Part shown: one piece after another, positions 30,288 to 60,968 of the stretch
How the letters are laid out: each line of letters opens with the position of its first letter
Position numbering within the stretch: position 1 is the first letter of the stretch
NCBI RefSeq assembly: GCF_003967015.1
Contig: NZ_AP017561.1
Location: 124,001 to 188,000, forward strand
DNA: 64,000 bases
From: Pseudanabaena sp. ABRG5-3
GTDB lineage: Bacteria > Cyanobacteriota > Cyanobacteriia > Pseudanabaenales > Pseudanabaenaceae
Direction: 5' to 3'
The notes under the pieces: generated by a model
Told to the model about the DNA's origin: nothing
Databases searched by the model: none
The model's input: only the letters and a program-made list of their open reading frames with translations
Translations under genes and position numbers: made by a program

Positions 30288-30373
30288 TAAACATTGTTCT
30301 TGATCGCAAAAGTAAGCAACATCTTCGACTCAATAGCCCCGCATCATCATAGCAAATTAACCCACGATCAGCG

Positions 30374-42475: not shown

Positions 42476-45361
42476 ATGGATTTTACAAGTTCTAGAGATA
42501 CATGCGCTTTATGGGAGGAAATGATATTACCGTTCTGGAGGCACAGAAATCGCTGCATTGGACAAAGATTTTTAGGTAGCTTGATAATTGATCAAGAGAA
42601 CTCCCAACGTATGTTAAATATTGTTGGTGCTAATTTAAGAGCGCATCTTGATCGTGGGAATAGAATGACGTATCTCTCACTCACTCGAAAATTTGAGACA
42701 AGAAAAAATTGGATCAAGATTTTAACTGCTGCTTTTTCTGAATATGCCTACTATTACTCAACTTCTAAACAGGGATTTTGGCAAGGTTTTTGCAATCAGG
42801 AGTTGATTGGAATTCCTTATGATCCAAGAACAGAAATTGCTTTTCGAGAAATTATTAGAGAAGGAATTGAACTATTAGGGTTAGTTAAAGCTAGACAAGG
42901 TCATACTTTTGTGTCAACTTTATGGCTACAAAGTGGCATTCCACAGAGAAATCTTGCACAGTTTGCAGAACTTGTACAGGGAATAGCTAGTGAGTATGGT
43001 TGGTGGGAATTAGCTCACACCGATGAGAAGCTTTTATCTCAAGAACTACTAGAATTTTGCCAAGAAAAATATGGATTATGGAATATATTGATTAATTTTC
43101 TAAAAGTCAGTTGTTCCGATACTGACGACGTAGAACCAATTTCGGGTCAATTAGTTCAAGGTATAGCTGCGGTAGCACTTGAACTTGAGCGTAATAACCA
43201 AGAGCCAGATATTTTAAAAGATGAAAATCAAAGAGAAAATATTCTAAGAAATTATGATTTGCCCAAACATTTTTTTCTTAGAGATTGGGGGGATTTAGTT
43301 CAAGTCTTAAAGAAAACAAAACGTCAAGGGAGATATAGTGGCAAAACTATTAAACCTCGTAAAAAGTCTCTGTCATTGACCTTAGATATCTTTGGCTCTG
43401 GAAATATTCAGCTTGCGTTACCCCAACAAAATCTTCGAGAACCAAATTGGTCAAGGCTACTAGGCTGTTATTGTCACATTTCAGTATCATCACACACTAT
43501 ATGGGAGGGAAATATACCTCGCTCTAATTCAGAATTTTTAGAAGTTCCTGAACAGATTATTGATATTAAAAGTGCAGAAAAACAATGGAGTTTACGATTG
43601 TTGGCTCATGATAAGAGCGAATTAGTCACTTGGCATCAAGAAGGAATTACAGATACATTGCCCTGCCTGATATTTGATGCAAATATAGGTACAAACATTT
43701 CTCTAGATGCTGCTAATCCAGTAATTTCTAAAACTAATGAAATAATTTGTTTTATTCCAAAAGATATCAAGCTAAAACTGAATAATGAGATAGATATATT
43801 GAGTAGCTATGTTCCATGTAGTATTTCTGGTTGGTATGGTCAACATATTCAATTACTGAGTCATAATTCTGAAATAGCACTCATTCAGTCAGAGTCAAGG
43901 CAAAACTCTCCAATCTTGATCGCATGGCAGATTTCTGATAGTCAGCAGGCAGTTTTGCGTGGACTAATGATCAAAGGGAAAAAGGAAGTTTACCTAGAAG
44001 CCCCGACCTTGTGGCATCCCCCCGCATCTCAAAATCTATCATTTAATATTTCGGTTGAAAATCTTACTATTCAGGAAATAACTGCTAGAACGTCGATAGA
44101 GATTTTGGCAAGTGATCGCTGGCAGAGTATTTCACTGCAACAGATGATTTCAACTTCAGGCAAGTATCTAGTTCGTTTTTGGGATGAAAATCTACGATAT
44201 TCATATCAGTTTGAACTAAAATCTCAACATCTAATTTCTGAAGTATCAAATCTTAATACTTTACAAGTTTTTAAAGGAAATAGAGATATTATTGAGAGTT
44301 TGCCAATTCAATGCGATCGCTTAGAGCAATTTTGGGCAGAGACTATCACGATACAAGGACTTTGGACTCTCGAAAAGGTCACGCTTACCCTATCTAATGG
44401 AAAAGGTCAAATTTCTTATGTGATTTATGCTGACAAGTCTGGGACTGTCATGATTAGTCTAGCGACTCTACATGGAAAACTATCTGATTCGGATTGGTAT
44501 GCTCTAAACTTTCAGCGTTCAGGGATGGAAACGCAAAGGTTGGTTGAGTTAGTTTCGAGCCAGCCAATCAGTTGCACATGGGATAGTCAAGCTATTTATC
44601 TTTCAGGACTTCAATCAAATCAAAATTATTCATTGATTTGTTGGAATCTTTTAACACCTCATCAGGAACCTAAAAGAATTAGATTACAAAATCTAGAGCA
44701 AGACACGATCACTTTTCCCTTAAGTTTAAATGCTGGAATTTATCATATTCAGATTCAAGGGCGATCTCTTCAAGATTTAGGATGTTGGTGTAGTAGCGAT
44801 CAAAATGATTTGCCTAGCTTAGCTAATGAAGATGAGGATTTAGCGAATTACTGCTACACCATTCTTGGTAATGAGTCTACACAAAGTTTTATAGCGGCCA
44901 GCCAAAAACTACCAATCAATTGTCAAAGAATCAAGTCAATGCTTTCTAGTCTGCAAGTAAATCCTTATATTTTCCCTAACTGGCTAAATCCAATATCTTT
45001 GCAGGAAAAGTTAGAAGCGTTTCTAAAAAGCTCATCTCCACCTGAACTTATTTCAGAGCCAACGCCGCCACCACCACTACCGACTCCAATAGTTGAGAAT
45101 TGGTATCTAATTCATGTAGCTCCTTACAGAAGAGAGACTTTTCATACACTTCTCAAAAGCAGACTTAGTTCTAACGAGTTTACAGTTTTAATTTTGGAAA
45201 TTGGAGTTCCTCAAGATTCTGTTTACCGAGATCTTATGCTCGTTAGATCTCCTAGTTTTAAAAATGTAAGGAATATTCTTAGCCAAATTGCTGGTTTTCA
45301 AAAAATCGAACCTAAACCAATTACGACGGATCAAGTAAATAGAATGTTGGGGCGTAAATAG
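42476..45361 (+). CDS. Large protein with NusG-NGN-like C-terminal domain
   Basis: 961 residues from ATG 42476, preceded by a GGGGG stretch five bases upstream. Residues about 1-300 are helical (LILPFWRHRNRC-type start, FLRDWGDLVQVLKK), about 300-850 are beta-rich with Ig/jelly-roll-like segments (TSGKYLVRFWDENLRYSYQF; LTLSNGKGQISYVIYADKSG), 860-873 are a proline linker (SEPTPPPPLPTPIV), and 874-961 resemble the NusG N-terminal domain: NWYLIHVAPYRRETFHTLL, then DLMLVRSPSFKNVRNI and IAGFQKI..ITTDQVNRML, like the WYV..H, VRN.PGV and EEV.RIL positions of NusG/RfaH. No membrane segment. First gene of a three-gene operon with the 310-aa and 2082-aa proteins. It may stand where DruH or similar unknowns stand in DUF1998-helicase systems; that is inference. 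Confidence 0.75.
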   Translation: MDFTSSRDTCALWEEMILPFWRHRNRCIGQRFLGSLIIDQENSQRMLNIVGANLRAHLDRGNRMTYLSLTRKFETRKNWIKILTAAFSEYAYYYSTSKQGFWQGFCNQELIGIPYDPRTEIAFREIIREGIELLGLVKARQGHTFVSTLWLQSGIPQRNLAQFAELVQGIASEYGWWELAHTDEKLLSQELLEFCQEKYGLWNILINFLKVSCSDTDDVEPISGQLVQGIAAVALELERNNQEPDILKDENQRENILRNYDLPKHFFLRDWGDLVQVLKKTKRQGRYSGKTIKPRKKSLSLTLDIFGSGNIQLALPQQNLREPNWSRLLGCYCHISVSSHTIWEGNIPRSNSEFLEVPEQIIDIKSAEKQWSLRLLAHDKSELVTWHQEGITDTLPCLIFDANIGTNISLDAANPVISKTNEIICFIPKDIKLKLNNEIDILSSYVPCSISGWYGQHIQLLSHNSEIALIQSESRQNSPILIAWQISDSQQAVLRGLMIKGKKEVYLEAPTLWHPPASQNLSFNISVENLTIQEITARTSIEILASDRWQSISLQQMISTSGKYLVRFWDENLRYSYQFELKSQHLISEVSNLNTLQVFKGNRDIIESLPIQCDRLEQFWAETITIQGLWTLEKVTLTLSNGKGQISYVIYADKSGTVMISLATLHGKLSDSDWYALNFQRSGMETQRLVELVSSQPISCTWDSQAIYLSGLQSNQNYSLICWNLLTPHQEPKRIRLQNLEQDTITFPLSLNAGIYHIQIQGRSLQDLGCWCSSDQNDLPSLANEDEDLANYCYTILGNESTQSFIAASQKLPINCQRIKSMLSSLQVNPYIFPNWLNPISLQEKLEAFLKSSSPPELISEPTPPPPLPTPIVENWYLIHVAPYRRETFHTLLKSRLSSNEFTVLILEIGVPQDSVYRDLMLVRSPSFKNVRNILSQIAGFQKIEPKPITTDQVNRMLGRK

Positions 45362-45363
45362 AT

Positions 45364-46296
45364 ATGAAAGACACAATTATTTTGCTACTTAGTCAACATC
45401 GACAGCCTACAAATTCATCTCTGCCTTTGGCTTTAACTATTAGCCAAATTACCTCCTTGCTTAAATCAACGATCGCGCCCGATCGCAATCTAAATACTGA
45501 GACTCTTAGGCAAGACTTAAATGAACTAGAAGCAATGGGTGAAATCTTGGCAGGAGATCGCAATCAATACTGTATAGCTCCACCCACGCTACTAGCACTT
45601 GATGAAGACAACTTGACTAGTTTGCTATTTACAGGTGATCGCACTTATTTGTCGTTAGTTCATCAAACTCTTGAAAGCGATCCAACAGATCTTGATAATT
45701 TGCGAATTCGCCCTAAGAAACAGAATCTTTCATGGATTAGATCTCATATAGAACAAATTGGTGTGAGGCTATGGACTGTTGCAGATAGCTTGGCAATCTT
45801 GCCAATTCCACAAAAGCCCGATCGAGTAGTTCTGCGATCGCCTTTGACTCGCAATCCATTTGAGAACGACAATTGGAGAACAGATCAAGACATTTTACAA
45901 TATCTACCTCGTCCCAATTTGTCGTTACAAACAGCGCGATGGCAACCAGCCAACTATGTCCAAATCTTGACTCAAAACTTATCTCCATTAATACGATTTC
46001 CAACGGGAGAGTATATCTGGATGGATGGCACAGAATTTTATGAAATCGAGCCAGATGTAGCCATGCTCACGATGTTTGCTTTGGATACAGAAGCAAATGC
46101 AAATCTCAAAATTATTTGGGATGAACCACAGGGCAGATTGAATTTGCAAGGAATAAATCTCCCCAGTGACTATGCGAGATGGTTGTGGCGAGTTTCAGAA
46201 CCAGTTGACGATATGTATCGCACTCGATACTTTGAGCCACTCAAACGCCCACTCATGAAAAAAGCTTTAAATAAATTAGGATGTGAACTCGTATGA
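45364..46296 (+). CDS. Winged-helix-like protein of the helicase operon
   Basis: 310 residues, starting two bases after the preceding stop. Residues about 1-75 look like a winged helix (TISQITSLLKSTI, NTETLRQDLNELEAMGEILA, NQYCIAPP). The rest has no family I recognise; it contains SWIRSHIEQIGVRLWTVADS and an aromatic-rich part (FPTGEYIWMDGTEFYEIEPD; RWLWRVSEPVDDMYRTRYFE). Its stop overlaps the helicase start (ATGA, 46293-46296), so it is made in step with the helicase and may be a DNA-recognition or loading subunit. Function is otherwise unknown. Confidence 0.8.
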   Translation: MKDTIILLLSQHRQPTNSSLPLALTISQITSLLKSTIAPDRNLNTETLRQDLNELEAMGEILAGDRNQYCIAPPTLLALDEDNLTSLLFTGDRTYLSLVHQTLESDPTDLDNLRIRPKKQNLSWIRSHIEQIGVRLWTVADSLAILPIPQKPDRVVLRSPLTRNPFENDNWRTDQDILQYLPRPNLSLQTARWQPANYVQILTQNLSPLIRFPTGEYIWMDGTEFYEIEPDVAMLTMFALDTEANANLKIIWDEPQGRLNLQGINLPSDYARWLWRVSEPVDDMYRTRYFEPLKRPLMKKALNKLGCELV

Positions 46297-49200
46297 AATA
46301 CCTCGACCCCATTAAGGCAATTACTAACCCTCGTGAAGACTTTATTCGCTACTTACTTACGGCTTATCCACTACGCGATCGCAACCTCCGCGAAAAGCTA
46401 AAAGAAAAACTCCAAGAACCAGGAATTGTCTGGCAACAGCCTTATCTTGAGGGTTCACAACCTTATCAATCTGCTGGTAGTGTTAGAAATTTAGTTGAAC
46501 AATCGATTTTGCATCCTCGGATGACAGAACTATCTGTACCAAGCGATCGCCGTCTTTATGAGCATCAGCAAAGGGCAATTGAAGCAGTCAATAATGGCGA
46601 AAATATCATCGTAGCGACAGGAACTGGTTCTGGCAAAACAGAATGCTTTCTAATTCCCATGTTGGATATATTGCTGAAAGAGGGAAATGATTTACGCGAT
46701 CGCGGAGTTAGGGCGTTAATCCTTTACCCAATGAATGCTCTGGTAAACGATCAGGTGAAACGCTTACGTCAGTTACTTTGCCGTCAAAATCCACAGCAGC
46801 CATTGATTAAGTTTGGTTTCTATACTAGCCGTACTGAAACTGAGCATGAAGACGCAGAAGAATCATTGCGGAAGGAACTAGAGACTTATGAGAGTTCAGA
46901 ATTACAAGATTTGTTTACAAGCCTTGACAAGATAAATCTGAGTACCCGCGATCGCTTGATTGAAGAAGCAGTCAAGAAGATCCAGACAATTCAAGCCATT
47001 TCCCGCGAAGATATTTGGGAAAGTCCGCCACATATTCTCGTTACCAACTACTCAATGCTTGAGCATATGTTGATTCGTCCTACTGAGCGAAAACAGGTGT
47101 TTGAAGCTTCGAGTGCAAAATTTAAAATGTTAGTTCTGGATGAAGCTCATACTTACAATGGCTCTACAGGGTCAGAAGTATCTATGCTCCTCAAACGTTT
47201 GAAAGCATCTATGTCAATATCTGATGGCACTATTCGTTGCATTGCCACCAGTGCCAGTTTAGGAGAGGCGGCGATCGATGGGCAGGTCATGACTTTTGCT
47301 GGGGAGCTTTTTGGCGAAACATTTAGTCAAGTCATTCGTGGTAATCGCGTTACGGCTTTAGAGCGTTTAGGTACTCCCTACGATTTGGCTCCCGATCACA
47401 GTGATGCTGACGTTTTGGAATATCTGAGTACGATGGAGTTACCTGAAACTGAGGCGATCTCTGACTGGCGTGATCGACTACTCTTAGTTGTACCAACAAA
47501 CCACCTTGAGATCGCTGAATCTCAAGCACAGAATGATTTTCATCGCTTACTTTGGTTTGCGCTTAAGGGACATCCACTTATCCATCGCTTGATCAATATT
47601 CTCAGAAATGCACCTCAACCTTGGGATGACATTGCCAAATCAGCACATCTATGGAATATAGATCTACCCACTTCATTAGATGGAAGCCTTGACGTAAATA
47701 TTGTAGAAAAAGCTAAAAAAGCTCTAGCTCGTCTTTTGCAACTGGGTACATTAGCGCGTGAAAATACTGATGATTTGCCATTACTTCCAGTAAGATTACA
47801 TTTGCTGTTCCGTAGTCTAGAAGGAATTTATAGCTGTATTAATCCAACTTGTCGCAAACTCTATTTAAACGAAAAGCAAATTTGCGATGACTGCCAATCA
47901 CCTGTTTTGGAGTTGGGTAGCTGCTCTCAGTGCGGTCAAGATTACGCTTTTACACAACTAAATAGAAATACTAGACAGTTAGAACCCTTACCTCGCTCTA
48001 ATCAAGCGGTAAAAGAAAATACTAAAATCTACACCTTAACTCTCAATCCTCTGTTCAGTAACACTGAGGATGAAGACAATAATGAAGAAGATGAAGATCA
48101 AAATTCTGATCTGATGAGTTCGTTAAGCTTTTCGCTAAATCAAACTCATGGATGGATTGGTAATCCCTCAAGCAATCCTCTTGGAGCAATCTCCACACCT
48201 CCTAATTCATCTTCAGAGAGAACTTTTCAACTTCAATGGCATAGAGCTAGAGGACAAAACAATCAAGAAGGATGCTATTTACCTAAATGTGCTGCCTGTG
48301 GTGCTAGACCAAACCGATCGCTTGCCATTAACCGCTTTGTTGCCTATACAGATGCGCCTCTAGAGGCAATGGTAGATAGCTTGTTTGATTTACTGCCCGA
48401 ACCTATGCGATCGGATGAAAGTTTATCAAAACGAAAACTCTTGACATTCTCAGATGGTCGTCAAGATGCAGCTTTCTTTGCTTCTGACTATCAACGCACT
48501 CATACAGAGATGCTCTATCGTCAGATGGTTTGGCAAGCATTTCAATCAGCTAATGAAAATGATGGTGGTATTGCTAATGTAAATCAAATTACTGATCACT
48601 TGCAGCAAATTTTCTTAGAGCGATCTATTCCTCATCCTGATAGAGACTCTGAAAGAAACTACAGAAGCTATTGTCCTCAAGATCCTATTGATGGAAGACA
48701 GGCACAAAGCAGTTGTGAAGTTTGGGCTAAAAAGAGAGCTAAAGAACTTTTACTTAGAGAATTTGCAATCCCCTTTGCTCGTCGTTCTTCTTTAGAAGCT
48801 TTTGCTATACTCGCTTGTCACATAGAACTATCGGAAACTGATCCTTTACTTGATGGGATTGCAGAACTGTTTGGCGTAACAAATTCTGAAGCATATATTT
48901 TCTTGATTGGACTTACAGATATTATTCGCCGTACTGGAATTGTCAGTATTTCTGGAGCATCAAATTATTTCCCAGAAACAGGTGGAGTTGAAGGCGCTCG
49001 TCCTGAGATGGTGGATGCACAAGGCAGATCAAAGAACTATCTATTTTTAGAACAAAGTCCGCAAGAAGCTAGAAGATTTCCCGATTCTCCTTCTTTTTTG
49101 CCAAGATGGACTAATTCAGGTCAAGTTAGCCAACGTCTAAATCGTCTGGGTTGGTTTTATGCTCAAATGTTTGGGGATAATTTCCCGACCCGCGAAAGTT

Positions 49201-52200
49201 TTATATCACTATTTCATCAGCTTGAAAGATCTGGGCTTCTCGTAAAGGCGCAGTATGGTCATCAACTAAATTGGGATTTGCTCAATGTGATGGAAACAGC
49301 AGATAACTGGCATCAGTGCGATCGCTGTCAGCAAGTTGTTCATGTCCCAAATTTGAATGAGCTTAGAGCTACAACTCCTAACCCTAGTTTAAATGTCTAT
49401 TCTTGTCGTGCTTTCAAATGTAAAGGAACACTACACCCATACGAACCAGAACAACTACAACAAGCAGAATCTGAACACTATCAACAGTATTTGATTAAAA
49501 ATCGAGAGCCATTGGCATTGCGATCGCAAGAACATACTGCCCAACTTGGTACAGAAGAACTAGCAAAGCGGGAAAATGGCTTTCGGCGCGGACAGATTAA
49601 CCTGCTCAGTTGTTCGACAACCCTAGAAATGGGTGTAGATATCGGTGAATTGCAAGCAGTAGTTCTCCGTAATTTTCCCCCTCATGTGAGCAACTATCAA
49701 CAACGAGCAGGACGAGCAGGACGACGTACCGATGGTGTAGCGATTACGCTGATGTATGGACAACGCCGCCCTCACGATCACTTTTATTTTGAGCAACCCG
49801 ATAAACTGATCGCGGGTTCTAATCAAATTCCAAGAGTAGATGCTGGCAACTGGCAAATCCAACAGCGACATATTCGTGCTGAGTTATTGGCTGAATTTCT
49901 GAGTGGCTATCCTCAAGGTAATAATCAAGGGGCTGAAAAAGTTAAGATTCAAGACTTTTTAGAATTGCCTGATCCTCTTACCTTTTCTGTATTCACTACA
50001 CCAGCAACAGCAATGGTTTGCACTTTACAACAATGGCTAAACAATAATAGGGCTAACGAGTTAGCGCAAGGTTGGATTGATCGATTAAATGCCTCTGGAA
50101 CTGCTAGAAGTCTGTTAGATGATTTCTGTCAAAAAATTGATGAGTTTCAGCAAGAGCAATGTCAAGACTGGAACGATCTAGCGTTACCTCTATCAGAAAT
50201 CAATTCGGATATTGTTACTGCTTTAAGCAATCCTCAAAATGGAGGTAACGTAAATAGTTTAATTAATAGAAGAACAAGAATCCAGTCTGAACTACAAAAA
50301 GTTGCATCCCGCAAACTTCATGATGAGCTAGTGCAAGCAAGTATCCTGCCTATCTATGGATTCCCCATTGATGTTGTTCGCTTGCTCACAGGCGAAAGCA
50401 ACGAGCGTAACTCCTCACAAGGTAAACATCGACTAGAACGCGATCGCCGTCTAGCATTGGGCGAATACGCCCCTGGTCAAGATGTGGTGGTTGATGATCG
50501 TGTTTATCGAAGCGTAGGTATTAATCGCCCAAGAGATCCTGAGAGAAATTACTACTGGGTCTGTAAAAATTGCAATTATTTTGAGGCATTTAGCACTCGA
50601 AACAATCAAGTCGAAGAATGTCGTAAATGTAAGCACAAACCAACATTAGCAGTTGATAAAGCAATTAACGAGTATTGGGTTCCCAAAGCATTTGTAACAG
50701 ATTGGGCAGCAACGGCAAAGGTCACGCCTTATCTCAAACCAATTCGCCAACTCACATCACAAGTTTTTCTAGCACATTCAGGAGATCCCAAACAAGATCT
50801 ATCAGTAGAAAATATTTGCCAACTTACGGTAAGTCAAAACGGAACTTTTTTCTTGGCAAATAAAGGACAGAGAAGCTTCACTAATCAAGGCTTCTACATC
50901 TGTGAGAGTTGTGGATTAGACATGAGTGAGAAAGTTCGTAAATGGCAAGAAGCTTCAAGAACTCCTAGGTCAGGGAGAAGATCTAATACCACACCGCCCG
51001 CTAGACCTACGCATAATCATCCTCTTAATGGAAAAAATTGCACAGGATCTTGGTCACAGAACCCCATTCATTTAGGACATGAATTTAAAACTGACTTTCT
51101 CAAAATCCAATTTGATCGCGCCACCAACCCATCACGATTATTCGTTACTGATGCTGTCACTCATACGGTTGAAGATAGAGTAATCGCCTCAGATGCAGAG
51201 ACTTCAAATAATCGTGTTGATTTTTGGCGATCGCTCACCTATGCCTTACTTGCCGCCGCCGCTCAAGTGATTGATGTGCGCCGAGAAGAACTTGATGGCT
51301 TATTCAGACCATTAGAAAATGGACAAGCAGAAATAGTCATTTACGATAATGTTCCAGGTGGAGCAGGCTATAGCCAACGCATTGCCGATGATTTTCAGGA
51401 AATCCTGATTGAAGCTTATCGGTTAACTGATTCTTGTAGCTGCGAAAGTAGTTGCTACGACTGCCTGAGAACCTATTCTAATCAAATATTTCACCACGAA
51501 CTAGATCGAAAAGAGGTTGTCAGGTTTCTACGTCCAATTATCGAAATTGTGGAACCTGACGAAGTATTACAGAATTTTGCCCCTAGTTCTAGTCGGGTGC
51601 GGTTAGAGATAGTCGCTAATGACTTAGCCTCTCATTGTCGCATGGCTACAACTGGCAGCATGATTTACTTGCCAACCCTAAGCGATCGCTTTCGTCTAGA
51701 TCGTGGTGAGCCAATGTCTTGGCTAAAGAAAATTACCGAAATGGTCAAAAAATGTGAGCCTTTAACTATTATTTTGCATGAACTACCTCAGCCTAATTGC
51801 GACCAAAATCTAGTTTTACGCAAGCGCCTATCACAATGGATCGATCAAGGATCGGTCAATCTCTATCAAACCGATGTAGATAAGTTGCCAATTTTCTATT
51901 TCCAAACCTCACCCCAAAATCGTATCGCCCTTGGATTACATCGAGAACCTGACAACCAAATGGTATGGCTCCAAACTCGCAGCGCAGAAGGTGTTCAAAC
52001 TATTCAAGCAAGGTTAAATGATTTGGTGTCGAATGCTAGAGAAGTAGAAGCGATTGAATTAGAAGATCCAAATACTCAGGTGATAGAACCCGATCCATCT
52101 TGGGGCAGTCTCAGCTTGGCAGAGTTACGCCAAAGACTAGGACTAGAGACAGTTTTGATGGGTAGCCCAGTTGCAAAGGTTACTTATCGCGATCGCTATC

Positions 52201-52541
52201 TCAATTTTGCAGGAGCAAGACATCTAGTTGACCTATTGCAAGGAGATTGGTTACAAGGCGCTGAGGTTATTGTAAATATCCTTGAAGATCCTGATAAACC
52301 AGACCGTTTAGAGGAAATTAAAGAACGATTCGCCACAATTTCAGGTCATGTTGTCCAACAAGCCTATAGATCGGGTGTAAGTTCTAGCGATCGCTTTATC
52401 CATGCGCGTTCCTTAGAAATTCAAAAACAAGATGGACAACGCTTTAGAATTCTATTTGATAAAGGGATGGACTTTATAAGTAAGTCAGTGGATCAAACTT
52501 ATAAAATTAATGAGGCAACCTATGTTGTTATTACACGCTAA
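46293..52541 (+). CDS. Giant DUF1998 superfamily 2 helicase
   Basis: 2082 residues. Helicase lobe 1: VATGTGSGKTECF (about 107-119), LVTNYSMLEHMLIRP, DEAH box VLDEAHTYNG (about 282), TSASL. An inserted zinc-ribbon region (about 510-560, INPTCRKLYLNEKQICDDCQ, CSQCGQDY) and an acidic stretch. Lobe 2: CSTTLEMGVDIGELQAVVLR and the arginine-finger motif QRAGRAGRRTDG (about 1136). DUF1998 (about 1640-1760): YDNVPGGAGYSQRI and the four-cysteine cluster CSCESSCYDCLRTYSNQ. The last about 110 residues end SSDRFIHARSLEIQKQ..RILFDKGMDFIS, reminiscent of inactive PLD-fold MIT_C domains. Size and layout recall DruE of Druantia, DrmA/B of DISARM, DpdJ and MrfA. Third gene of the operon; its 3' end overlaps the opposing gene by 11 bases. 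Confidence 0.88.
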   Translation: MKYLDPIKAITNPREDFIRYLLTAYPLRDRNLREKLKEKLQEPGIVWQQPYLEGSQPYQSAGSVRNLVEQSILHPRMTELSVPSDRRLYEHQQRAIEAVNNGENIIVATGTGSGKTECFLIPMLDILLKEGNDLRDRGVRALILYPMNALVNDQVKRLRQLLCRQNPQQPLIKFGFYTSRTETEHEDAEESLRKELETYESSELQDLFTSLDKINLSTRDRLIEEAVKKIQTIQAISREDIWESPPHILVTNYSMLEHMLIRPTERKQVFEASSAKFKMLVLDEAHTYNGSTGSEVSMLLKRLKASMSISDGTIRCIATSASLGEAAIDGQVMTFAGELFGETFSQVIRGNRVTALERLGTPYDLAPDHSDADVLEYLSTMELPETEAISDWRDRLLLVVPTNHLEIAESQAQNDFHRLLWFALKGHPLIHRLINILRNAPQPWDDIAKSAHLWNIDLPTSLDGSLDVNIVEKAKKALARLLQLGTLARENTDDLPLLPVRLHLLFRSLEGIYSCINPTCRKLYLNEKQICDDCQSPVLELGSCSQCGQDYAFTQLNRNTRQLEPLPRSNQAVKENTKIYTLTLNPLFSNTEDEDNNEEDEDQNSDLMSSLSFSLNQTHGWIGNPSSNPLGAISTPPNSSSERTFQLQWHRARGQNNQEGCYLPKCAACGARPNRSLAINRFVAYTDAPLEAMVDSLFDLLPEPMRSDESLSKRKLLTFSDGRQDAAFFASDYQRTHTEMLYRQMVWQAFQSANENDGGIANVNQITDHLQQIFLERSIPHPDRDSERNYRSYCPQDPIDGRQAQSSCEVWAKKRAKELLLREFAIPFARRSSLEAFAILACHIELSETDPLLDGIAELFGVTNSEAYIFLIGLTDIIRRTGIVSISGASNYFPETGGVEGARPEMVDAQGRSKNYLFLEQSPQEARRFPDSPSFLPRWTNSGQVSQRLNRLGWFYAQMFGDNFPTRESFISLFHQLERSGLLVKAQYGHQLNWDLLNVMETADNWHQCDRCQQVVHVPNLNELRATTPNPSLNVYSCRAFKCKGTLHPYEPEQLQQAESEHYQQYLIKNREPLALRSQEHTAQLGTEELAKRENGFRRGQINLLSCSTTLEMGVDIGELQAVVLRNFPPHVSNYQQRAGRAGRRTDGVAITLMYGQRRPHDHFYFEQPDKLIAGSNQIPRVDAGNWQIQQRHIRAELLAEFLSGYPQGNNQGAEKVKIQDFLELPDPLTFSVFTTPATAMVCTLQQWLNNNRANELAQGWIDRLNASGTARSLLDDFCQKIDEFQQEQCQDWNDLALPLSEINSDIVTALSNPQNGGNVNSLINRRTRIQSELQKVASRKLHDELVQASILPIYGFPIDVVRLLTGESNERNSSQGKHRLERDRRLALGEYAPGQDVVVDDRVYRSVGINRPRDPERNYYWVCKNCNYFEAFSTRNNQVEECRKCKHKPTLAVDKAINEYWVPKAFVTDWAATAKVTPYLKPIRQLTSQVFLAHSGDPKQDLSVENICQLTVSQNGTFFLANKGQRSFTNQGFYICESCGLDMSEKVRKWQEASRTPRSGRRSNTTPPARPTHNHPLNGKNCTGSWSQNPIHLGHEFKTDFLKIQFDRATNPSRLFVTDAVTHTVEDRVIASDAETSNNRVDFWRSLTYALLAAAAQVIDVRREELDGLFRPLENGQAEIVIYDNVPGGAGYSQRIADDFQEILIEAYRLTDSCSCESSCYDCLRTYSNQIFHHELDRKEVVRFLRPIIEIVEPDEVLQNFAPSSSRVRLEIVANDLASHCRMATTGSMIYLPTLSDRFRLDRGEPMSWLKKITEMVKKCEPLTIILHELPQPNCDQNLVLRKRLSQWIDQGSVNLYQTDVDKLPIFYFQTSPQNRIALGLHREPDNQMVWLQTRSAEGVQTIQARLNDLVSNAREVEAIELEDPNTQVIEPDPSWGSLSLAELRQRLGLETVLMGSPVAKVTYRDRYLNFAGARHLVDLLQGDWLQGAEVIVNILEDPDKPDRLEEIKERFATISGHVVQQAYRSGVSSSDRFIHARSLEIQKQDGQRFRILFDKGMDFISKSVDQTYKINEATYVVITR

Positions 52542-55500
52542 GTGACTGAACTAGAGATTCTCCTCTAGAAAGATCGGACGATCTCAGTTCTATGACTTGC
52601 CACGGAGGATTAGAATTGCGAAGCCGATCGCGGATAAAGCGATCACGTCTAAGATTAATACCTTTATGGAAAGATGCACCATCAATGTAAATAGCTAATC
52701 GTTTTTCAGGTATTGCAAAGTCAGCGACTGAAATAGGGGTATTGCTATCACTAGGCATAATAGGAACTTGTTTCTGAGGATTAAATCCATACTTTTCAAA
52801 TAGTTTCAAGAATTTAAGTTCTAGAGGTGAACCGACACCAGCTTCATAAGCTTCAAGCCAAGGCGTGGGATCGTTAAGATCGCCAATTTGCTGAGTGCTA
52901 GGTTGAGGAGAATTTTGAACAATTTCTTCAAGGGTTGGTACAACAGATAACCAGTTAAGGTGTTCATGGTAGCGCTGGTTTTGATAGGTTTTGAGACATC
53001 TATAGCAAGCAGTTTCACAATTTGGATGATCTAGATGCTCAAGCGCACGTTTGGCAACCAAATCAAATTGTGAGGCAATTCGTTGCAGATAACCGCTTCC
53101 ACCAAGGCTAGGATCGATGAATGTTAAAGAGACCAGTCGATATTGTCTACCTTCATGATCAACTTTCCAAGACCCCTCAAATTCAAACTCAATTTCGGAA
53201 CCATCGAGCATATAGTAATGTTGCATTCCCATCTTTAGCGCATAGCCGAGGGATAGTCCCCATGACATGATTTGAGTGTCTTGCGTATCATGAGGTACGG
53301 GTAGCATCAATCTTAAAGTTTCTGCTTTTTCTGCTGTCACGATCGCTAGCGGAATTGGTGGTTGACTGGCGAGATGACAGTCAAGGCTATGTCCGTAGAC
53401 ATTCTGGCTGCTATTATTTCTAGTCGTCCGCCTACCGCGATTGTTTTTAGAATTGCTTTGAGATTCAATATTGGGATCTTTTAGCATCCTGCCACAGGAA
53501 CTACAGATTGGATAGCCTTTTGCTTTGTTATGTAGGATAGGGATACCTGACTGCATCTCGGTACTAGTCGGGGGTAAACCTTCGTTTAGCCAACGGACTT
53601 CTTCATCTTGGCGCAAAACTAAAGACCATCCAGTTGCGACAGTCCATCGTCCAGTAACTAGACCATCCCACTGTGGTTGAATACTTACTAAGTTGCGTGC
53701 AGCATAGCGCTCTTCTTCATCCAGAATTGGGCTTTCGTCAGGTTGAGCTAGAAAGCCAGCAAATTCAGAAGCAGGAAGAGATTTACCTATTTCATCAGAC
53801 TTGCAGCGCGGACAAGCAGGGTGATCGGCATCAAATTTCAGATTGCAGGTACGACATATTCTGTAGTTCCAGCTAGGGGAATCAGATTTTGGATTCCAAG
53901 GCGAAGCATTATCTAAACCAATAACTTTCCATCGCTTTGTGCGTGCATAAACATTGGCATTAGGACGGAATTGGTTAATGCCTAATCTTCTAGCAACAGT
54001 TACTGGATCATCTTCATGGCGATCGCCTAATAGTCTTAAACTAGATGGCTGGGTAGGAAACTCATATCCTGGTAAGATTCCGAATTCGGCAAAGCGCCTT
54101 AATGGATATCCTGCGGAGCGATCGTCTGATTCAGTCTGATTGTTTTGTTTATTATTTGGTATGCCTAGTATCCTTGCGACCAAATCGGCGGCACGGGTTG
54201 CAGGATACTTACCGATTAATTCTTGGTAATAAGATTCCAGAGCCTTCCGCAATTCGATGACTTGTCTGGCTGTGCGATCGATGATGTCTTGAATCTTAGC
54301 GGGTAACTTTGCTAAGGAATCTCTAAGTTCTATTTCACCAATATGTGCTTCTACCAATACATGAGATTCCCAAGCAGCTAATGCTAGGGATATTGCCCGA
54401 TCGCTTTGAGCGTTAATTCCTGCAATCAGGGCATCAACTGCTTCTTGTTTAATTTCTCCATTTGCGGAAACATAATCTAGCATTTTTCCTGCTAAACCAG
54501 TCTCGGATAAGCCGAAGGCGATCGCATTGAGATGTCTAAAAATTACATCACGATTACCTAGAGCGAGAAAAGGGGCAGGAACTTCCCCAGAAATCATTTC
54601 TGTAGGCTTATCGTAGAAGTATTGATCGTGGGGAGTACTGCGGGCATACCCAACGACTAAGCCAACGCGAGTACGCCGTCCCGCCCGTCCACCTCTTTGG
54701 GCATAGTTATCAGGGCGTGGCGGGACATTGCGTAAAATCACCGCATCTAGCCCACCAACGTCAATCCCCATCTCTAAGGTGGGTGAGCAGGCAAGCAGAT
54801 TAATTTTAGACCCAACCGTAGATGCTTTAAAGTCTTCTTCAATCTGAATACGTTCGTCGTTAGGGATTTGGGCAGTGTGTTCCTTCGCTTCAAGGGGAAT
54901 CACTTCATCTAACATGATGCGCTTTACAGTGCGGTTGTTGTCAATATCGATATCGTGCCAACGGATGGTTTCCCCATGACATTGAGGACAAGGAAAACCA
55001 ATTTTTGCGCCTGAAAGTGGCGTTGCACAAACTCCACATTTCAATCGATGGTCTTGTTGTACTAGCTTTAGCCGCACGATCTCATGATTGACTTGCAAAA
55101 GTTTGGTTTTATCACTAGCACCGTATAAATCTGAAGCAACTAAATACTTCCCAGGTTCAATGAGAAACTCCAGCAAGTCAATCATCATCTCTTCATTCAT
55201 GTGATTCACGTCATTCACGCCACCCATGCGACTGATTAGATGTTTGAGAATGCGCTCTAAGCTAGGACTGCGCCCCCCTGCTTTGGGTTTGCGCCAAGCG
55301 TTATTGTTTCTAATCCCATGCGCGATCGCTGCTTGGTCTAGATTAGCTAGCGGTTGTCCGTCTTTAGAAGCGGCATAACCACTTGGTTGTTTCATTCTGC
55401 GTTCCCAATCAGCCGCACGGATATAGTCTGGACAACTGGGATGGGAAGGGTGATAGCGCAACAGATCGCGAGAAAGACAGCCTCTAGTACGGATTTCATC

Positions 55501-58221
55501 TAATAGGCATCGGCTGATATACGCTAACTGCTCTAAACTTATGCCAAGTTGCTTGGCGATCGCACCGCCACACTGTTGCACATACTCATCTAGTCGCTCA
55601 TATTCGATCGCTACTAGCCCCAAATTAACTAGCGTCGCTCGATATCCCGCATTAACGGAAATTTCGTCAAGAAGGGGTGCTTCTTCCCAAGCTTGGACTC
55701 TTTTTCGTACTTCGTCAGTTAACCATGAGTTCCCTGCTTTTCCTTGATACCGAGGATTGTCATTTTCCTTTACACCAATTTCTCCTAACAGTTCCACGGC
55801 TCGTTGAATCGTCAATGAGTTTTCCTGTTGGAGTAGCTTGAGCAGTCTGCGCCGCAAGCGATCGTAACGACTAGCAAATATGATAAATCTGGCTTGGTGA
55901 GCAGCATCCTGACGGCTATCACTAAAGACTAGTAGGCGTTCCTTCCCATCGTGATTTGGTTGATTTTTATGGGCTTTGGCAAGAGTTTCGACTAATCCTT
56001 CACTCAATACTTTGATTGCCGCCGATGTCCCCAGCGCTACGGGCGTAATCACACTCCGACTACCTGCTGTTCCTCCACAGCAAAGACAGCGATTTCGTGC
56101 AGGTGCAAGGGTTACGCGAAGGGGGTAATCGGATTCTGTGGCACTAAAGGTTAAATTTCTTGGCTCGAAAGAACCCGTCACGATCGGACGACCGCGCATT
56201 TGCTTGGTACTTTTGCGATTTTTACCGCTTGCATCTACGTCTAGACTTTCATCGTCATCTTCGTCAATGTTATTTGTAGCCTCAAATCTACTAGGGTCAT
56301 AAAGCATCCATTCATGTTCATCAGCATGATCGCTACTGGGACGGAGAATTCCTTCACTCGGATCGACAGGATTTTCGCCAACAAAACGTAGATAGTGAGC
56401 GCCACAATTACGGCAAAGGTAGAGAGGTGCTGTTTTGCAACCACATTCACATTGCTCTTCGCCCATAGGATAGAGCTTGCCACAGGTCGGACTAACACAA
56501 CGATGAAACTGCCAACCACCTCTAATCAAACAATGGGCGCGTAGACGTAAGGCTCCCTTAGCATCATCAGTATCGTCTGGTAATGCTGCACCTGCAATGA
56601 GGGTAGCTTTAACTTCTCTTTCGATCGCATTATGATCAAATTGCTGACGCTCTGGTACTTCAAAACGCACGCGATCGACGATTTGACTAATCGACATAGG
56701 AGCGCGAATTAACCAACGATTGAGATCCCACAATAATTTGTGGCGATGGATTGGATTAGGAAGTGGTTTATGGTCAGGATGTAGCGGATATTTGGCTTCA
56801 GGAGGTATTTGGATCTCGGCAAGCTGTTCGCCAATCACATGAATAGTCTTGGGGTCTGCACCTGTGAGCTTGCTAAAAAAGTCTTGGACAGCGAGATCGC
56901 GTTGACGAATCTGTTCATCATGGCTAATGGATTCTGATGTGACACTTTTAATCGTGGCGGAAGTACCAACGGGAATGAGTTGACGATAGCGCCGATCGCG
57001 AATTGTCTCTACAGGATCGGCGAACCAATCTTGACGGGCATTGGCTAAATGGGCTTGAAGGCGGCGAATTAGGAGAGCTATATTGCTGCCTAATGTCCCG
57101 CGATAGGTATGCACCTCATCAAGGACTAGAAAGCGACAGCGATGGTTAGCAAATATATTTTCGCGATCGGCAGGACGCACCAATAAATATTCCAACATCA
57201 TGTAGTTGGTGAGGAGAATATGGGGCGGATTTTCGCGTAGTTGCTGCCGTTCGGCTTGTTTGGTGCTGCGATCGTACTTGTCAACGGTAACTGTGCCTGC
57301 CCAGCCCGATTCTGTAAGATATTCTTTGATCCGAATTAGCTGATCGTTGGCTAAGGCATTCATGGGATAAATCAATATTGCTGTCAATCCAGATTTTTTA
57401 AACTGAATGGCATCTTCGATCGCATTTTGAATGACTGGAAGAAGAAAGGTCTCCGTTTTGCCGCTACCTGTGCCTGTGGTGACTACTAGAGGTGAAGCAT
57501 CAGCTCCTAACAGATGGGCGATCGCTTCTGATTGATGCAAATAGGCTTGGTTGTTGCTAGAGCGCTTTTGCATGACTCTGGCTAATTTGGGCTCAATGGG
57601 TAAGTCTCGCCATTTTCTTCCTAATTTAAAGGGGCGATGGGCTTGGTAAAAGGGTTCTTGAGCTAAAAATAATGGTCTTTCTAGAGCAGTTTCGAGGTCG
57701 GCTTTTAGTAGGGGATCTTTAGCTCGAAATTCTGTCAGCAAATAGTCTTTATACTCATCAATGACATCTTGAAGTACTTGAATAGGATTCAAGGTATTAA
57801 GACCTTCACCTTTCCTGCTGAGAGATAGAGAATTGCCTCCTAAATCCCCCAATTCTGGCGGACTTGAAGATTCTGTTCCCCCCCAACTTGGGGGGCTAGG
57901 GGGTCTTGAGTCTAGCTTTGAAGCTTTGCCCCCTAAATCCCCCAATTCTGGGGGACTTTGAGAGACTGCCCGATCGCCTATCCAGTTGAGTAATTGCGTA
58001 CCAAAACTAAAGGTGAGAGTGGGAGAGTCAATTACTTTCCCTAGCTCAACAAAATCCCATGTGTCAGGAATTTTAGAAAGCAATAGATTCAGTTGTGCTG
58101 GGGCGATCGCTTCTACACCTGTACAGTCGAGAATTGCCATACGCTGACTGAGAAAAATGCTGGCGGCGGCGATCGCTTCATCACCTTTGACTAATAATTC
58201 TGAGAGTTGGAGGACGGTCAT
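52531..58221 (-). CDS. DUF1998 helicase with C-terminal nuclease-like domain
   Basis: 1896 residues from ATG 58221. Residues 1-82 resemble a STAS-like fold (MAILDCTGVEAIAPAQLNLL); 83-140 are a linker made of PPELGDLGG repeats (90-98, 121-129); helicase lobe 1 with TTGTGSGKTETF (about 248) and DEVH box LVLDEVHTYRG (about 365); zinc region CVSPTCGKLY..CECGCKT..CRNCGAHY; lobe 2 with SPTLEMGIDVGGLDAVILRN and QRGGRAGRRTR (about 1177); DUF1998 with DPSLGGSGYLQRI and CETACYRCLKTYQNQ; a C-terminal PD-(D/E)xK-like domain (about 1815-1896) with SVADFAIPEKRLAIYIDG, where Tyr replaces the usual Glu before xD. Its start overlaps the preceding RelE-UvrD stop (ATGA), so the two are coupled. A DISARM DrmA-DrmB-like fusion is an alternative reading. 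Confidence 0.88.
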   Translation of the reverse strand: MTVLQLSELLVKGDEAIAAASIFLSQRMAILDCTGVEAIAPAQLNLLLSKIPDTWDFVELGKVIDSPTLTFSFGTQLLNWIGDRAVSQSPPELGDLGGKASKLDSRPPSPPSWGGTESSSPPELGDLGGNSLSLSRKGEGLNTLNPIQVLQDVIDEYKDYLLTEFRAKDPLLKADLETALERPLFLAQEPFYQAHRPFKLGRKWRDLPIEPKLARVMQKRSSNNQAYLHQSEAIAHLLGADASPLVVTTGTGSGKTETFLLPVIQNAIEDAIQFKKSGLTAILIYPMNALANDQLIRIKEYLTESGWAGTVTVDKYDRSTKQAERQQLRENPPHILLTNYMMLEYLLVRPADRENIFANHRCRFLVLDEVHTYRGTLGSNIALLIRRLQAHLANARQDWFADPVETIRDRRYRQLIPVGTSATIKSVTSESISHDEQIRQRDLAVQDFFSKLTGADPKTIHVIGEQLAEIQIPPEAKYPLHPDHKPLPNPIHRHKLLWDLNRWLIRAPMSISQIVDRVRFEVPERQQFDHNAIEREVKATLIAGAALPDDTDDAKGALRLRAHCLIRGGWQFHRCVSPTCGKLYPMGEEQCECGCKTAPLYLCRNCGAHYLRFVGENPVDPSEGILRPSSDHADEHEWMLYDPSRFEATNNIDEDDDESLDVDASGKNRKSTKQMRGRPIVTGSFEPRNLTFSATESDYPLRVTLAPARNRCLCCGGTAGSRSVITPVALGTSAAIKVLSEGLVETLAKAHKNQPNHDGKERLLVFSDSRQDAAHQARFIIFASRYDRLRRRLLKLLQQENSLTIQRAVELLGEIGVKENDNPRYQGKAGNSWLTDEVRKRVQAWEEAPLLDEISVNAGYRATLVNLGLVAIEYERLDEYVQQCGGAIAKQLGISLEQLAYISRCLLDEIRTRGCLSRDLLRYHPSHPSCPDYIRAADWERRMKQPSGYAASKDGQPLANLDQAAIAHGIRNNNAWRKPKAGGRSPSLERILKHLISRMGGVNDVNHMNEEMMIDLLEFLIEPGKYLVASDLYGASDKTKLLQVNHEIVRLKLVQQDHRLKCGVCATPLSGAKIGFPCPQCHGETIRWHDIDIDNNRTVKRIMLDEVIPLEAKEHTAQIPNDERIQIEEDFKASTVGSKINLLACSPTLEMGIDVGGLDAVILRNVPPRPDNYAQRGGRAGRRTRVGLVVGYARSTPHDQYFYDKPTEMISGEVPAPFLALGNRDVIFRHLNAIAFGLSETGLAGKMLDYVSANGEIKQEAVDALIAGINAQSDRAISLALAAWESHVLVEAHIGEIELRDSLAKLPAKIQDIIDRTARQVIELRKALESYYQELIGKYPATRAADLVARILGIPNNKQNNQTESDDRSAGYPLRRFAEFGILPGYEFPTQPSSLRLLGDRHEDDPVTVARRLGINQFRPNANVYARTKRWKVIGLDNASPWNPKSDSPSWNYRICRTCNLKFDADHPACPRCKSDEIGKSLPASEFAGFLAQPDESPILDEEERYAARNLVSIQPQWDGLVTGRWTVATGWSLVLRQDEEVRWLNEGLPPTSTEMQSGIPILHNKAKGYPICSSCGRMLKDPNIESQSNSKNNRGRRTTRNNSSQNVYGHSLDCHLASQPPIPLAIVTAEKAETLRLMLPVPHDTQDTQIMSWGLSLGYALKMGMQHYYMLDGSEIEFEFEGSWKVDHEGRQYRLVSLTFIDPSLGGSGYLQRIASQFDLVAKRALEHLDHPNCETACYRCLKTYQNQRYHEHLNWLSVVPTLEEIVQNSPQPSTQQIGDLNDPTPWLEAYEAGVGSPLELKFLKLFEKYGFNPQKQVPIMPSDSNTPISVADFAIPEKRLAIYIDGASFHKGINLRRDRFIRDRLRNSNPPWQVIELRSSDLSRGESLVQSLSV
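57831..57960. repeat. Palindromic CCCCCAATTCTGGGGG repeats inside a coding region
   Basis: Three units (about 57831-57869, 57876-57904, 57927-57960) of the C5-AATTCTG-G5 type, translated on the minus strand as PPELGDLGG, PPSPPSWGG and PPELGDLGG. The same element occurs outside genes at 60432-60512 and 60958-61150. Confidence 0.85.
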
Positions 58222-60329: not shown

Positions 60330-60431
60330 TGCCAATCCACAATCTGATTTTATTTAGAATCTATGGTAGCTGTTACGCGAAATTTTTAGTAACTATCTTG
60401 TATAAATGTTTGATTGAAGGCTGAAGGGATC

Positions 60432-60512: not shown

Positions 60513-60578
60513 TTAGATCGATTGAAACGCAGTCAAAACAATGTAGGTATAATATGTGCTTCTAGATTAAAGAGTGTT

Positions 60579-60968
60579 ATGGAAAGGGAAAAAGACTCTA
60601 ATAGAATTCGAGGCAGTACAAAGGAAATTGAAGCTGCCGCCCGTCGCTTACGGCAACAGTTAACGGTTGCTGAGACAATCTTGTGGCAAGCATTACGAGG
60701 TCGTCAAATGGGCGGACTTAAATTTCGCTGCCAGCATCCTGTGGGAAGATTTATTGTTGATTTTTATTGTCCCAGTTCCAAACTGGTTATAGAAGTTGAT
60801 GGCGATATTCATAATCAACAACAGGAATACGACCAAGTACGAACAGAACAATTGCAAGCATTTGGTTATACAGTTTTAAGATTTACCAATGATGAAGTGA
60901 TTAATGATTTATCTTCTGTTTTAAGCCGAATTGAGAGTTTATCAAAAGTTGGATTCTTGCCCCCCTAG
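60579..60968 (+). CDS. DUF559 (VSR-like) endonuclease-type protein
   Basis: 129 residues from ATG 60579 (MEREKDSNRIRGSTKEIEAA); a TTG at 60522 is in frame but lies close to the repeat and is less likely. It contains the DUF559 pattern: ARRLRQQLTVAETILWQALR, GLKFRCQHPVGRFIVDFYC and LVIEVDGDIH, with acidic residues Asp61, Glu72 and Asp74 placed as in the PD-(D/E)xK/VSR nuclease fold, then GYTVLRFTNDEV. Single-domain DUF559 proteins are common in cyanobacteria; the substrate is unknown. The stop codon and last residues (LPP) come from the adjoining palindromic repeat, so the native C-terminus may have been altered by its insertion. Confidence 0.85.
   Translation: MEREKDSNRIRGSTKEIEAAARRLRQQLTVAETILWQALRGRQMGGLKFRCQHPVGRFIVDFYCPSSKLVIEVDGDIHNQQQEYDQVRTEQLQAFGYTVLRFTNDEVINDLSSVLSRIESLSKVGFLPP

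What the first reader, a model, noticed from the sequence alone, without database searches (positions are those of the whole stretch)
42476..58221. Candidate undescribed system: two facing DUF1998 helicase operons
A coupled trio (NGN-domain protein, winged-helix protein, 2082-aa DUF1998 helicase) meets tail to tail, with 11 bases of overlap, a coupled pair (RelE-UvrD, 1896-aa DUF1998 helicase-nuclease). Flanking are WYL, Exo-RecQ-UvrD, DUF559 and an adenine methylase. Parts recall Druantia, DISARM and Dpd, but none of those contains this set as far as I know.
Basis: inference. Interest (0 to 1): 0.75.

Follow-up and report, generated by a model that had tools for sequence, protein, structure and literature searches.

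The report
Two neighbouring phage-defence helicase systems
Side by side in a cyanobacterium lie two separate helicase systems that probably protect the cell against viruses: one is a variant of a recently described system (ARMADA), the other is a relative of Druantia, so far seen only in cyanobacteria, whose probable sensor protein carries a domain related to a transcription factor.

Summary
In detail: coordinates, coupling, 11-base overlap and domains hold. The single-system reading fails: the two operons occur independently.

Right operon: an ARMADA homologue (ArmA and part of ArmB lie beyond the window; ArmD = RelE-UvrD; ArmC = DUF1998 helicase with Vsr-like end). ARMADA was described in a 2025 preprint. 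Order here is A-B-D-C, seen in one other cyanobacterium, not type II's A-B-C-D.

Left trio: found at 25 further loci, all cyanobacterial (18 uninterrupted), with a WYL gene upstream at 13. Its helicase is on the Druantia DruE side but forms its own clade; its tail aligns with the DruE-III PLD tail. The 310-aa protein has a winged helix and a perhaps DruD-like end. The 961-aa protein has a helical N-terminus (weakly DruH-like), Ig/fibronectin-like domains and a NusG-type NGN domain; it diverges faster than its partners, as expected of a sensor.

No PADLOC, Pfam or NCBIfam model names the 961- and 310-aa proteins. Rating: new variant of a known kind, a cyanobacterial Druantia type. The mechanism (sensor triggers a helicase-nuclease on phage DNA) is inferred from Druantia III, not shown.

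The parts
41061..42266 (-). WYL-domain regulator (401 aa), divergent from the trio; part of the left system
   Evidence: PADLOC WYL/Csx1 9.1e-52; Pfam WYL below cut-off. A homologue (44-92% identical) lies just upstream of the trio at 13 of 25 relatives.
42476..45361 (+). 961-aa candidate sensor: helical N-terminus (about 1-280), Ig/fibronectin-like domains (about 300-772), helical linker, NGN domain (874-960)
   Evidence: Model pLDDT 77.7, pTM 0.41; VIA-align to NGN Z up to 13.2 and to Ig/Fn3-type chains Z 7-8.8, which may mean only a common arrangement; 25 relatives. N-terminus weakly like DruH.
45095..45355 (+). NGN (NusG N-terminal-like) domain of the sensor, residues 874-960
   Evidence: 41-43% identical to three standalone NGN proteins of unnamed cyanobacterial family f7 and 40% to a fourth from another family; relatives L096 and L103 are 64-70% identical to the first three, L087 only 24-29%.
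45364..46296 (+). 310-aa winged-helix protein, C-terminus possibly DruD-like
   Evidence: Model, Foldseek; hhalign to one DruD P 1.4e-4, 0 of 200 column shuffles reach the score; no match to a DruD of another PADLOC model.
46293..52541 (+). 2082-aa YprA/DruE-type helicase (Walker A, DEAH, QRAGRAGR, DUF1998/MZB)
   Evidence: PADLOC DruE1 768 bits, DruE3 719 bits; motifs; own clade on the Druantia side.
51660..52538 (+). C-terminal stretch aligning with the PLD-like tail of DruE type III (limits approximate)
   Evidence: Alignment: shared DRYL and H(G/A)R...FDxG motifs, absent from the two DruE1 in it. That the DruE III tail is PLD-like is taken from PMC13192584 and PMC12458937.
52531..58221 (-). 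ArmC-like YprA/DUF1998 helicase, 1896 aa, Vsr-like C-terminus
   Evidence: ArmC side of the trees; Pfam MTES_1575 at 1830-1885, E 0.003, below cut-off; 62% relative in G306.
58218..60335 (-). ArmD-like RelE-UvrD fusion, 705 aa
   Evidence: Pfam ParE_toxin 5e-6, UvrD; 27% to E. coli ArmD; 51-59% relatives directly before ArmC in G116 and G093.
61155..64000 (-). ArmB-like PglX/DrmMI-type N6-adenine methylase, 1489 aa, continues past the window; an ArmA-like SNF2 helicase (1073 aa) follows outside at G000:C2:190504-193725
   Evidence: DrmMI 281 bits; DrmD/BrxHII for the ArmA-like gene; Eco57I. A PIN-domain gene lies between them.
60522..60968 (+). DUF559-like nuclease ORF on the opposite strand inside the ARMADA operon; role unknown, possibly a bystander
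Evidence: not among the matched ORFs of the G306 operon, where a different 295-aa ORF lies on the opposite strand between ArmB and ArmC.

Best explanation
The region holds two independent anti-phage systems placed tail to tail. Left: WYL + 961-aa + 310-aa + DruE-type helicase, a cyanobacterial Druantia lineage. Proposed mechanism: the 961-aa protein is the infection sensor (variable helical N-terminus, Ig-like scaffold, NGN domain that may dock on an RNA polymerase or on a phage protein that targets one); the winged-helix protein couples it to the helicase or to DNA; the DruE-type helicase then loads on 3' single-stranded DNA of phage intermediates, unwinds it and, through its PLD-like tail, cuts it. 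WYL controls expression. Right: an ARMADA operon (SNF2 helicase, adenine methylase, RelE-UvrD, YprA helicase with Vsr-like nuclease) that blocks phage replication directly, as reported for E. coli ARMADA II. Shown here: gene content, conservation, clades, predicted folds, separability. Inferred: every biochemical step, and that either locus defends this host.
For: Trio order is conserved at cyanobacterial loci: 25 found, 18 of 25 with all three ORFs uninterrupted. The Druantia side of the tree has SH-aLRT 100 and the trio helicases form one clade at 100. Tail motifs shared with DruE III. NGN and Ig/Fn3-like folds. DruD-like C-terminus against one DruD. The sensor is the least conserved gene in 6 of 6 pairs compared, e.g. 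window versus L080 68.0% against 91.6% (310 aa), 82.7% (helicase) and 91.8% (WYL); L083 versus L082 72.9% against 87.0%, 92.9% and 89.5%. This parallels DruH versus DruE in PMC13192584 (section 13). ARMADA: all four Arm genes present, and an A-B-...-D-C operon in G093. Separability.
Against: hhalign probabilities to DruH (4.2%, 1.3%, 0.6% whole length; 9.5% N-terminus) and DruD (52%) are below the usual standard, and the trimmed whole-length DruH comparison aligned another region; a DruD of another PADLOC model gave nothing; PADLOC DruH and DruD models do not hit. dN/dS of the sensor (0.24-0.44 for the whole gene) is no sign of positive selection, only of faster change. The sister group of the trio clade is weak (SH-aLRT 89; joining DruE III not rejected, p-AU 0.438); both trees are quick searches and the program warned of long branches meeting. 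The NGN fold is not clear in every relative's tail. By length the PLD-like tail is missing in 2 of the 18 uninterrupted trios (L091, L094). No expression or phage data exist.
Confidence: 0.7

Rival explanations
1. The two facing operons form one compound defence system with shared control.
For: They touch (11-base overlap); an E. coli plasmid (L051) carries a DruH-DruE pair next to an ARMADA II gene set, and PMC12458937 reports synergy of that pair of systems in E. coli.
Against: No ArmB, ArmC or ArmD relative as a best match at any of the 25 trio loci in the stretch held (up to about 10 kb upstream, mostly 2.4 kb or less downstream), nor in the longer stretches around the trios of G280 and G187. 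G306 has ArmA, ArmB and ArmC relatives but no trio helicase, and only a standalone NGN match to the sensor. The close relative L080 shows no ARMADA gene downstream of its trio (2.4 kb held).
Confidence: 0.07
2. The trio is simply a divergent Druantia type III (DruH-DruE) that gained a winged-helix gene; no separate type is needed.
For: Tail motifs shared with DruE III; DruH-like N-terminal stretch (0 of 200 shuffles); Ig-like scaffold as reported for DruH; joining DruE III not rejected (p-AU 0.438).
Against: No PADLOC DruH hit; best PADLOC model is DruE1, not DruE3; the tree prefers the type I/IV-like side at SH-aLRT 89; partner with a DruD-like end.
Confidence: 0.25
3. The trio is a DNA-repair or transcription-coupled repair module (YprA/MrfA helicases act in repair; NGN domains bind RNA polymerase), not phage defence.
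For: NGN domain; MrfA-type helicases act in repair (PMC12458937).
Against: Patchy: sensor in 4 of 386 genomes, also on plasmids and near integrase genes; helicase clade beside defence helicases; ARMADA and other defence-like genes nearby; fast, mosaic sensor.
Confidence: 0.06

Closest known systems
ARMADA (types I and II; Bell et al. 2025 preprint, PMC12458937)
   Same: All four Arm proteins: SNF2/BrxHII helicase, PglX-like methylase, YprA helicase with Vsr-like end, RelE-UvrD; A and B come first, as the preprint reports for many cyanobacteria and type II.
   Different: ArmC with that of G306 is its own long-branched lineage beside type I (SH-aLRT 85 and 91); ArmD precedes ArmC; ArmD is 27% identical to E. 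coli ArmD; a PIN-domain gene and an opposite-strand ORF are inserted.
Druantia type III (DruH + DruE)
   Same: DruE-side helicase, tail motifs, large partner with Ig-like domains that diverges faster, weak N-terminal likeness.
   Different: Extra winged-helix gene, NGN domain, WYL gene; partner not recognised by DruH models.
Druantia type I (DruA-DruB-DruC-DruD-DruE)
   Same: Best PADLOC helicase model is DruE1; the gene before the helicase is perhaps DruD-like and overlaps it by 4 bases, as in P. putida (L067).
   Different: No DruB or DruC match in the trio and no DruA-C model on the partners or WYL; the two DruE1 aligned lack the PLD-like tail.
DISARM and Dpd
   Same: YprA-family helicase; a methylase and SNF2 helicase resembling DrmMI and DrmD in the right operon.
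   Different: Helicase core and DUF1998 are one gene here (split in DISARM, per PMC12458937). A drmC-type gene and deazaguanine genes were not specifically searched for.

Membership tests
ARMADA | YprA homologue in the ARMADA clade | tested here: met
   ArmC side SH-aLRT 100 in both trees; long branch, position inside at 85 and 91
[quoted passage not shown]
ARMADA | C-terminal Vsr-type nuclease on the YprA protein | tested here: inconclusive
   MTES_1575 E 0.003, below Pfam cut-off; residues look right by eye
ARMADA type II | Strict order A-B-C-D | tested here: not met
   Order A-B-D-C; ArmC also apart from the type II rows
ARMADA type II | RelE-UvrD (ArmD) present | tested here: met
   but also directly before a type I ArmC in G116 and G093, so not diagnostic in cyanobacteria
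Druantia (any type) | DruE helicase | tested here: met
   Druantia side SH-aLRT 100; DruE models up to 768 bits
Druantia type III | DruH partner | tested here: inconclusive
   No PADLOC model hit (the library does hit E. coli DruH); hhalign of N-termini 27.0 against shuffle maximum 25.1
Druantia type III | Two C-terminal PLD domains on DruE | tested here: inconclusive
   Motifs of the last part of the tail are shared; the domains were not predicted or searched on their own, and catalytic competence was not tested
Druantia type III | Two-gene system | tested here: not met
   Three coupled genes, plus WYL at 13 of 25 relatives
Druantia type I | DruA, DruB, DruC genes | tested here: not met
Druantia type I | DruD | tested here: inconclusive
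   hhalign P 1.4e-4 to one DruD, nothing to another
Both | Protection against phage | not testable with these tools
   Needs bench work

The most novel reading that the evidence does not exclude
The trio is a distinct Druantia type that joins a DruH-like sensor, a DruD-like subunit and a DruE with a type-III tail, and the sensor's NGN domain is an integrated decoy: a copy of a host NGN protein (64-70% identical, in two relatives, to standalone NGN proteins of cyanobacterial genomes of family f7) that baits phage proteins aimed at the host transcription machinery, or ties DNA cutting to transcribed phage DNA.
Probability: 0.15. Interest if true: 0.8.

Novelty: new variant of a known kind. Interest (0 to 1): 0.5.

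Why it matters
Druantia types are reported to share only DruE, and how their other parts relate is open. A lineage that seems to combine a DruH-like sensor and a DruD-like subunit with one DruE would link types I and III, and its NGN-bearing sensor makes a concrete, testable proposal for what is sensed. It also extends ARMADA: RelE-UvrD beside type-I-like ArmC in cyanobacteria suggests that this fusion does not define type II. Finally, Druantia-type and ARMADA operons adjoin here as they do on an E. coli plasmid, an apparently independent juxtaposition of two kinds of system reported to act in synergy.

Tried and rejected
Whole-length profile comparison of the sensor with DruH: P 0.01 with small alignments, 0.039 with larger ones, probability 4.2% and 1.3%; trimmed alignments gave 0.6% and another region; only the N-terminal cut exceeds all 200 shuffles (27.0 against a maximum of 25.1), so I claim a lead, not homology. 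Its controls against seven other N-termini and the reversed DruH profile scored 11.9-17.8. Sensor against the N. watsonii 955-aa, P. putida DruC and Calothrix 565-aa proteins: nothing. 310-aa family against the Calothrix 449-aa protein (P 0.039 with the small alignment), N. watsonii DruD and the Nostoc 361-aa protein (6 of 100 shuffles reach the score): nothing convincing. DruD search in plasmids for more relatives: 1 and 5 records, too few for an alignment of the matching kind. Search of viral contigs with the sensor: 53 pattern matches, no relative. Foldseek with the 310-aa model: no match at E 0.001 or less. DruH itself (9tud) did not appear among the listed fold matches of the sensor; that library ends 2026-04-08, so this is no evidence either way. 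dN/dS did not indicate positive selection. Considered and dropped: the Exo-RecQ-UvrD gene as a part (no match to it beside the trio at L080 or in the G306 ARMADA locus; L093 alone has a RecQ-like ORF that matches it, and an SNF2-like one; L096 has an SNF2-like one); the DUF559 ORF as a conserved part.

Rows dropped: the tree omits the split G187 helicase used. The 25 loci include 7 with broken or partial genes (L088, L090, L097-L100, L102), counted as such. Alignments A5 and A7 hold 18 sequences each, not every one of the 25 loci.
Full report
What is there. The five ORFs stand at the stated coordinates with the stated couplings and an 11-base tail-to-tail overlap. Both large proteins are DEAD/DEAH helicases with the DUF1998/MZB zinc domain; the 705-aa protein is a ParE/RelE-UvrD fusion. 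The window is G000:C2:124001-188000; the closest named relative of the trio is a Pseudanabaena MAG (L080), so the host is probably a cyanobacterium of that group (inference).

Right operon. Beyond the window edge the methylase continues to 1489 aa and is followed by a PIN-domain gene, a 100-aa ORF and a 1073-aa SNF2-type helicase. PADLOC places these nearest DrmMI and DrmD/BrxHII. The set SNF2 helicase, PglX-like methylase, YprA helicase, RelE-UvrD is ARMADA, described in the preprint PMC12458937 (I read parts 1-4 of 8 of its text: abstract, introduction, results, conclusions and the start of the methods). Compared with an E. coli plasmid that carries Zorya II, DruH-DruE and a four-gene ARMADA II set (L051; the ARMADA label is mine, from the gene set), the window proteins give 27% (ArmD), 31% (ArmA) and 23% (ArmB and ArmC) identity over parts of their length. 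In trees of 25 and 32 helicases the window ArmC and that of G306 form a pair on the ARMADA side, next to type I with support 85 and 91, on a long branch (quick searches, with a warning that long branches meet). G306 has ArmA 66%, ArmB 68.5% and ArmC 62%, no RelE-UvrD gene between ArmB and ArmC, and is not among the 16 genomes with a RelE-UvrD match at E 1e-30.

RelE-UvrD in cyanobacteria. 16 of 386 genomes match at E 1e-30 or less. I looked at 10 of these loci: in G116 and G093 the relative (59% and 51%) directly precedes a type I ArmC, and G093 also shows ArmA (its C-terminal part, cut by the stretch) and ArmB upstream with four small ORFs between, so A-B-...-D-C recurs; in G284, G304 and G080 a 45-47% relative of E. 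coli ArmD sits beside a type II ArmC; in 5 loci no ArmC was found (two of them on contigs under 9 kb). The preprint's main text assigns this gene to type II.

Left operon. PADLOC gives the helicase DruE1 768 bits and DruE3 719 bits and gives the two partners nothing; Pfam and NCBIfam name neither partner above cut-off. A scan of one genome per GTDB species found 25 loci, all cyanobacterial by record title or strain name. In 24 of 25 a relative of the 310-aa protein is adjacent (not L090) and in 24 of 25 a DruE relative or fragment follows (not L099, with 1.9 kb held); 18 of 25 have three uninterrupted ORFs. A WYL relative lies directly upstream in 13 of 25, divergent in 11 and co-directed in 2 (L093, L095); 3 others (L081, L089, L104) have under 900 bases upstream. 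Plasmid copies were found in Tolypothrix (sensor gene in two ORFs; the same trio helicase in three near-identical records) and Nostoc linckia. In 386 genomes the sensor is in 4 (one of them, G334, degenerate); the other 23 of 27 matching genomes match only near its C-terminus, nearly all within the NGN tail.

Clade and tail. The trio helicases form one clade (100) within the Druantia side (100), sister to the DruE I/IV-like rows at 89; holding them with DruE III is not rejected (p-AU 0.438). Yet the C-terminus aligns with the PLD-like tail of DruE III and not with the two DruE1 in the alignment. By length two of the 18 uninterrupted trios lack that tail (L091, L094).

Partners. The 310-aa model is confident (88.8) with an N-terminal winged helix. 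Its C-terminal 83 columns match P. putida DruD (PADLOC DruD, 386 bits) with hhalign P 1.4e-4, probability 52%; 0 of 200 shuffles reach the score (maximum 22.9 against 36.8), but N. watsonii DruD (another DruD model) gave nothing. The sensor model is moderate (77.7, pTM 0.41): helical, then Ig/Fn3-like strands, then NGN (Z 13.2). DruH is reported as helical N-terminus plus three Ig-like domains and faster divergence than DruE (PMC13192584; abstract, sections 9 and 13 read, passages found elsewhere). N-terminal profiles of sensor and DruH score 27.0, above all 200 shuffles (maximum 25.1), but the hhalign probability is only 9.5%.

Sensor evolution. Window against L080: sensor 68.0%, 310-aa 91.6%, helicase 82.7%, WYL 91.8%; the sensor is the least conserved gene in 6 of 6 pairs. 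By region, window against L080: N-terminus 63% (dS 1.4), Ig 80% (dS 0.58), NGN 40% (dS 1.7); against L081 the NGN is 85% (dS 0.26) and the N-terminus again 63% (dS 1.8). Such uneven dS suggests mosaic exchange of the two ends (inference; dS above 1 is near saturation). Whole-gene dN/dS is 0.24-0.44, so no positive selection is shown. The NGN of L096 and L103 is 64-70% identical to three standalone 104-aa NGN proteins from unnamed family f7 (probably Nostocaceae, inference); the window's is 41-43%, L080's 38-40%, L087's 24-29%. Alignment of the C-terminal 105 residues shows clear NGN likeness in some relatives and doubtful homology in others. The window's own genome gave no standalone copy of this kind (its second match lies in residues 75-141); its one PF02357 match is on C1.

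Independence. None of the 25 trio loci has an ArmB, ArmC or ArmD relative as a best match in the held sequence; two (L093, L096) have a weak SNF2 match upstream. Downstream coverage there is mostly 2.4 kb or less; it is longer at G280 and G187 (about 6 and 18 kb, no window ARMADA protein matched beyond cross-matches of the trio helicase itself) and at the N. linckia plasmid (20 kb, no methylase gene annotated). A more distant ARMADA elsewhere is not excluded. ArmC relatives: 2 of 386 at E 1e-60; trio helicase: 4 of 386 at E 1e-100; only G000 has both.

What is in print. The searches listed no paper whose title or shown abstract describes this trio; PMC12458937 has no occurrence of NGN, NusG or winged and PMC13192584 none of NusG, winged or cyanobacteri. 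The preprint's 'Druantia type III-like' branch may already contain this helicase clade; its supplementary tables were not read. DruE III biochemistry (3'-tailed DNA, dimer, PLD domains) is from PMC13192584; the M. smegmatis study PMC13316683 was seen as abstract and outline only.

Verdict. One known kind in a variant arrangement (ARMADA) and one apparently unnamed Druantia-side type, side by side and separable. Defence function is inferred from family, neighbourhood and patchy distribution.

Noticed in passing
window 34486-40961: The Exo-RecQ-UvrD gene (36267-40961 -) stops short near its C-terminus; a transposase-like ORF (34984-36165 -) follows and then a 156-aa ORF that reads by eye like the missing UvrD end, so the gene looks interrupted by an insertion sequence.
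   Followed up: partly
ArmC, ArmD and ArmB genes of the window operon (ArmC residues about 86-130; ArmB residues 473-508): A proline/glycine-rich dispersed repeat (protein SPPELGDLGG-like; C-rich then G-rich DNA) sits in frame in ARMADA proteins; ArmB and ArmC copies are 64% identical over 36 residues, a similar stretch in ArmD is seen by eye.
   Followed up: partly
L006-L028, e.g. L041:12223-12537: Standalone ~104-aa NGN-like proteins in 23 of 386 cyanobacterial genomes, mostly of one family; an M20 peptidase gene lies beside them in the two cases scanned. Function unknown.
   Followed up: partly
L032:12819-19983 and L033: Beyond the ARMADA operon lies a further defence-like cluster: DUF2357 protein, AAA ATPase (PDC-M26A), wHTH protein, MkoA-like protein, AAA_11 helicase, and a 240-aa MZB/DUF1998 fragment.
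   Followed up: no
L072 (G306): The G306 ARMADA locus is followed by a Cap4-nuclease-like AAA/HEAT protein (1524 aa) and an AIPR protein.
   Followed up: no
L068 and L069 (Calothrix and Oscillatoria plasmids): Another cyanobacterial Druantia-type set: ~565-aa and ~445-aa proteins plus DruE-like helicase; the Calothrix 449-aa protein matches PADLOC DruL4.
   Followed up: partly
window 27144-34255: Two adjacent TPR-rich ORFs of 1047 and 1293 aa with CHAT-like C-termini (label by eye, not scanned); relatives of the first lie about 5 kb upstream of the trio in L082, L086, L092 (fragment) and L103.
   Followed up: no
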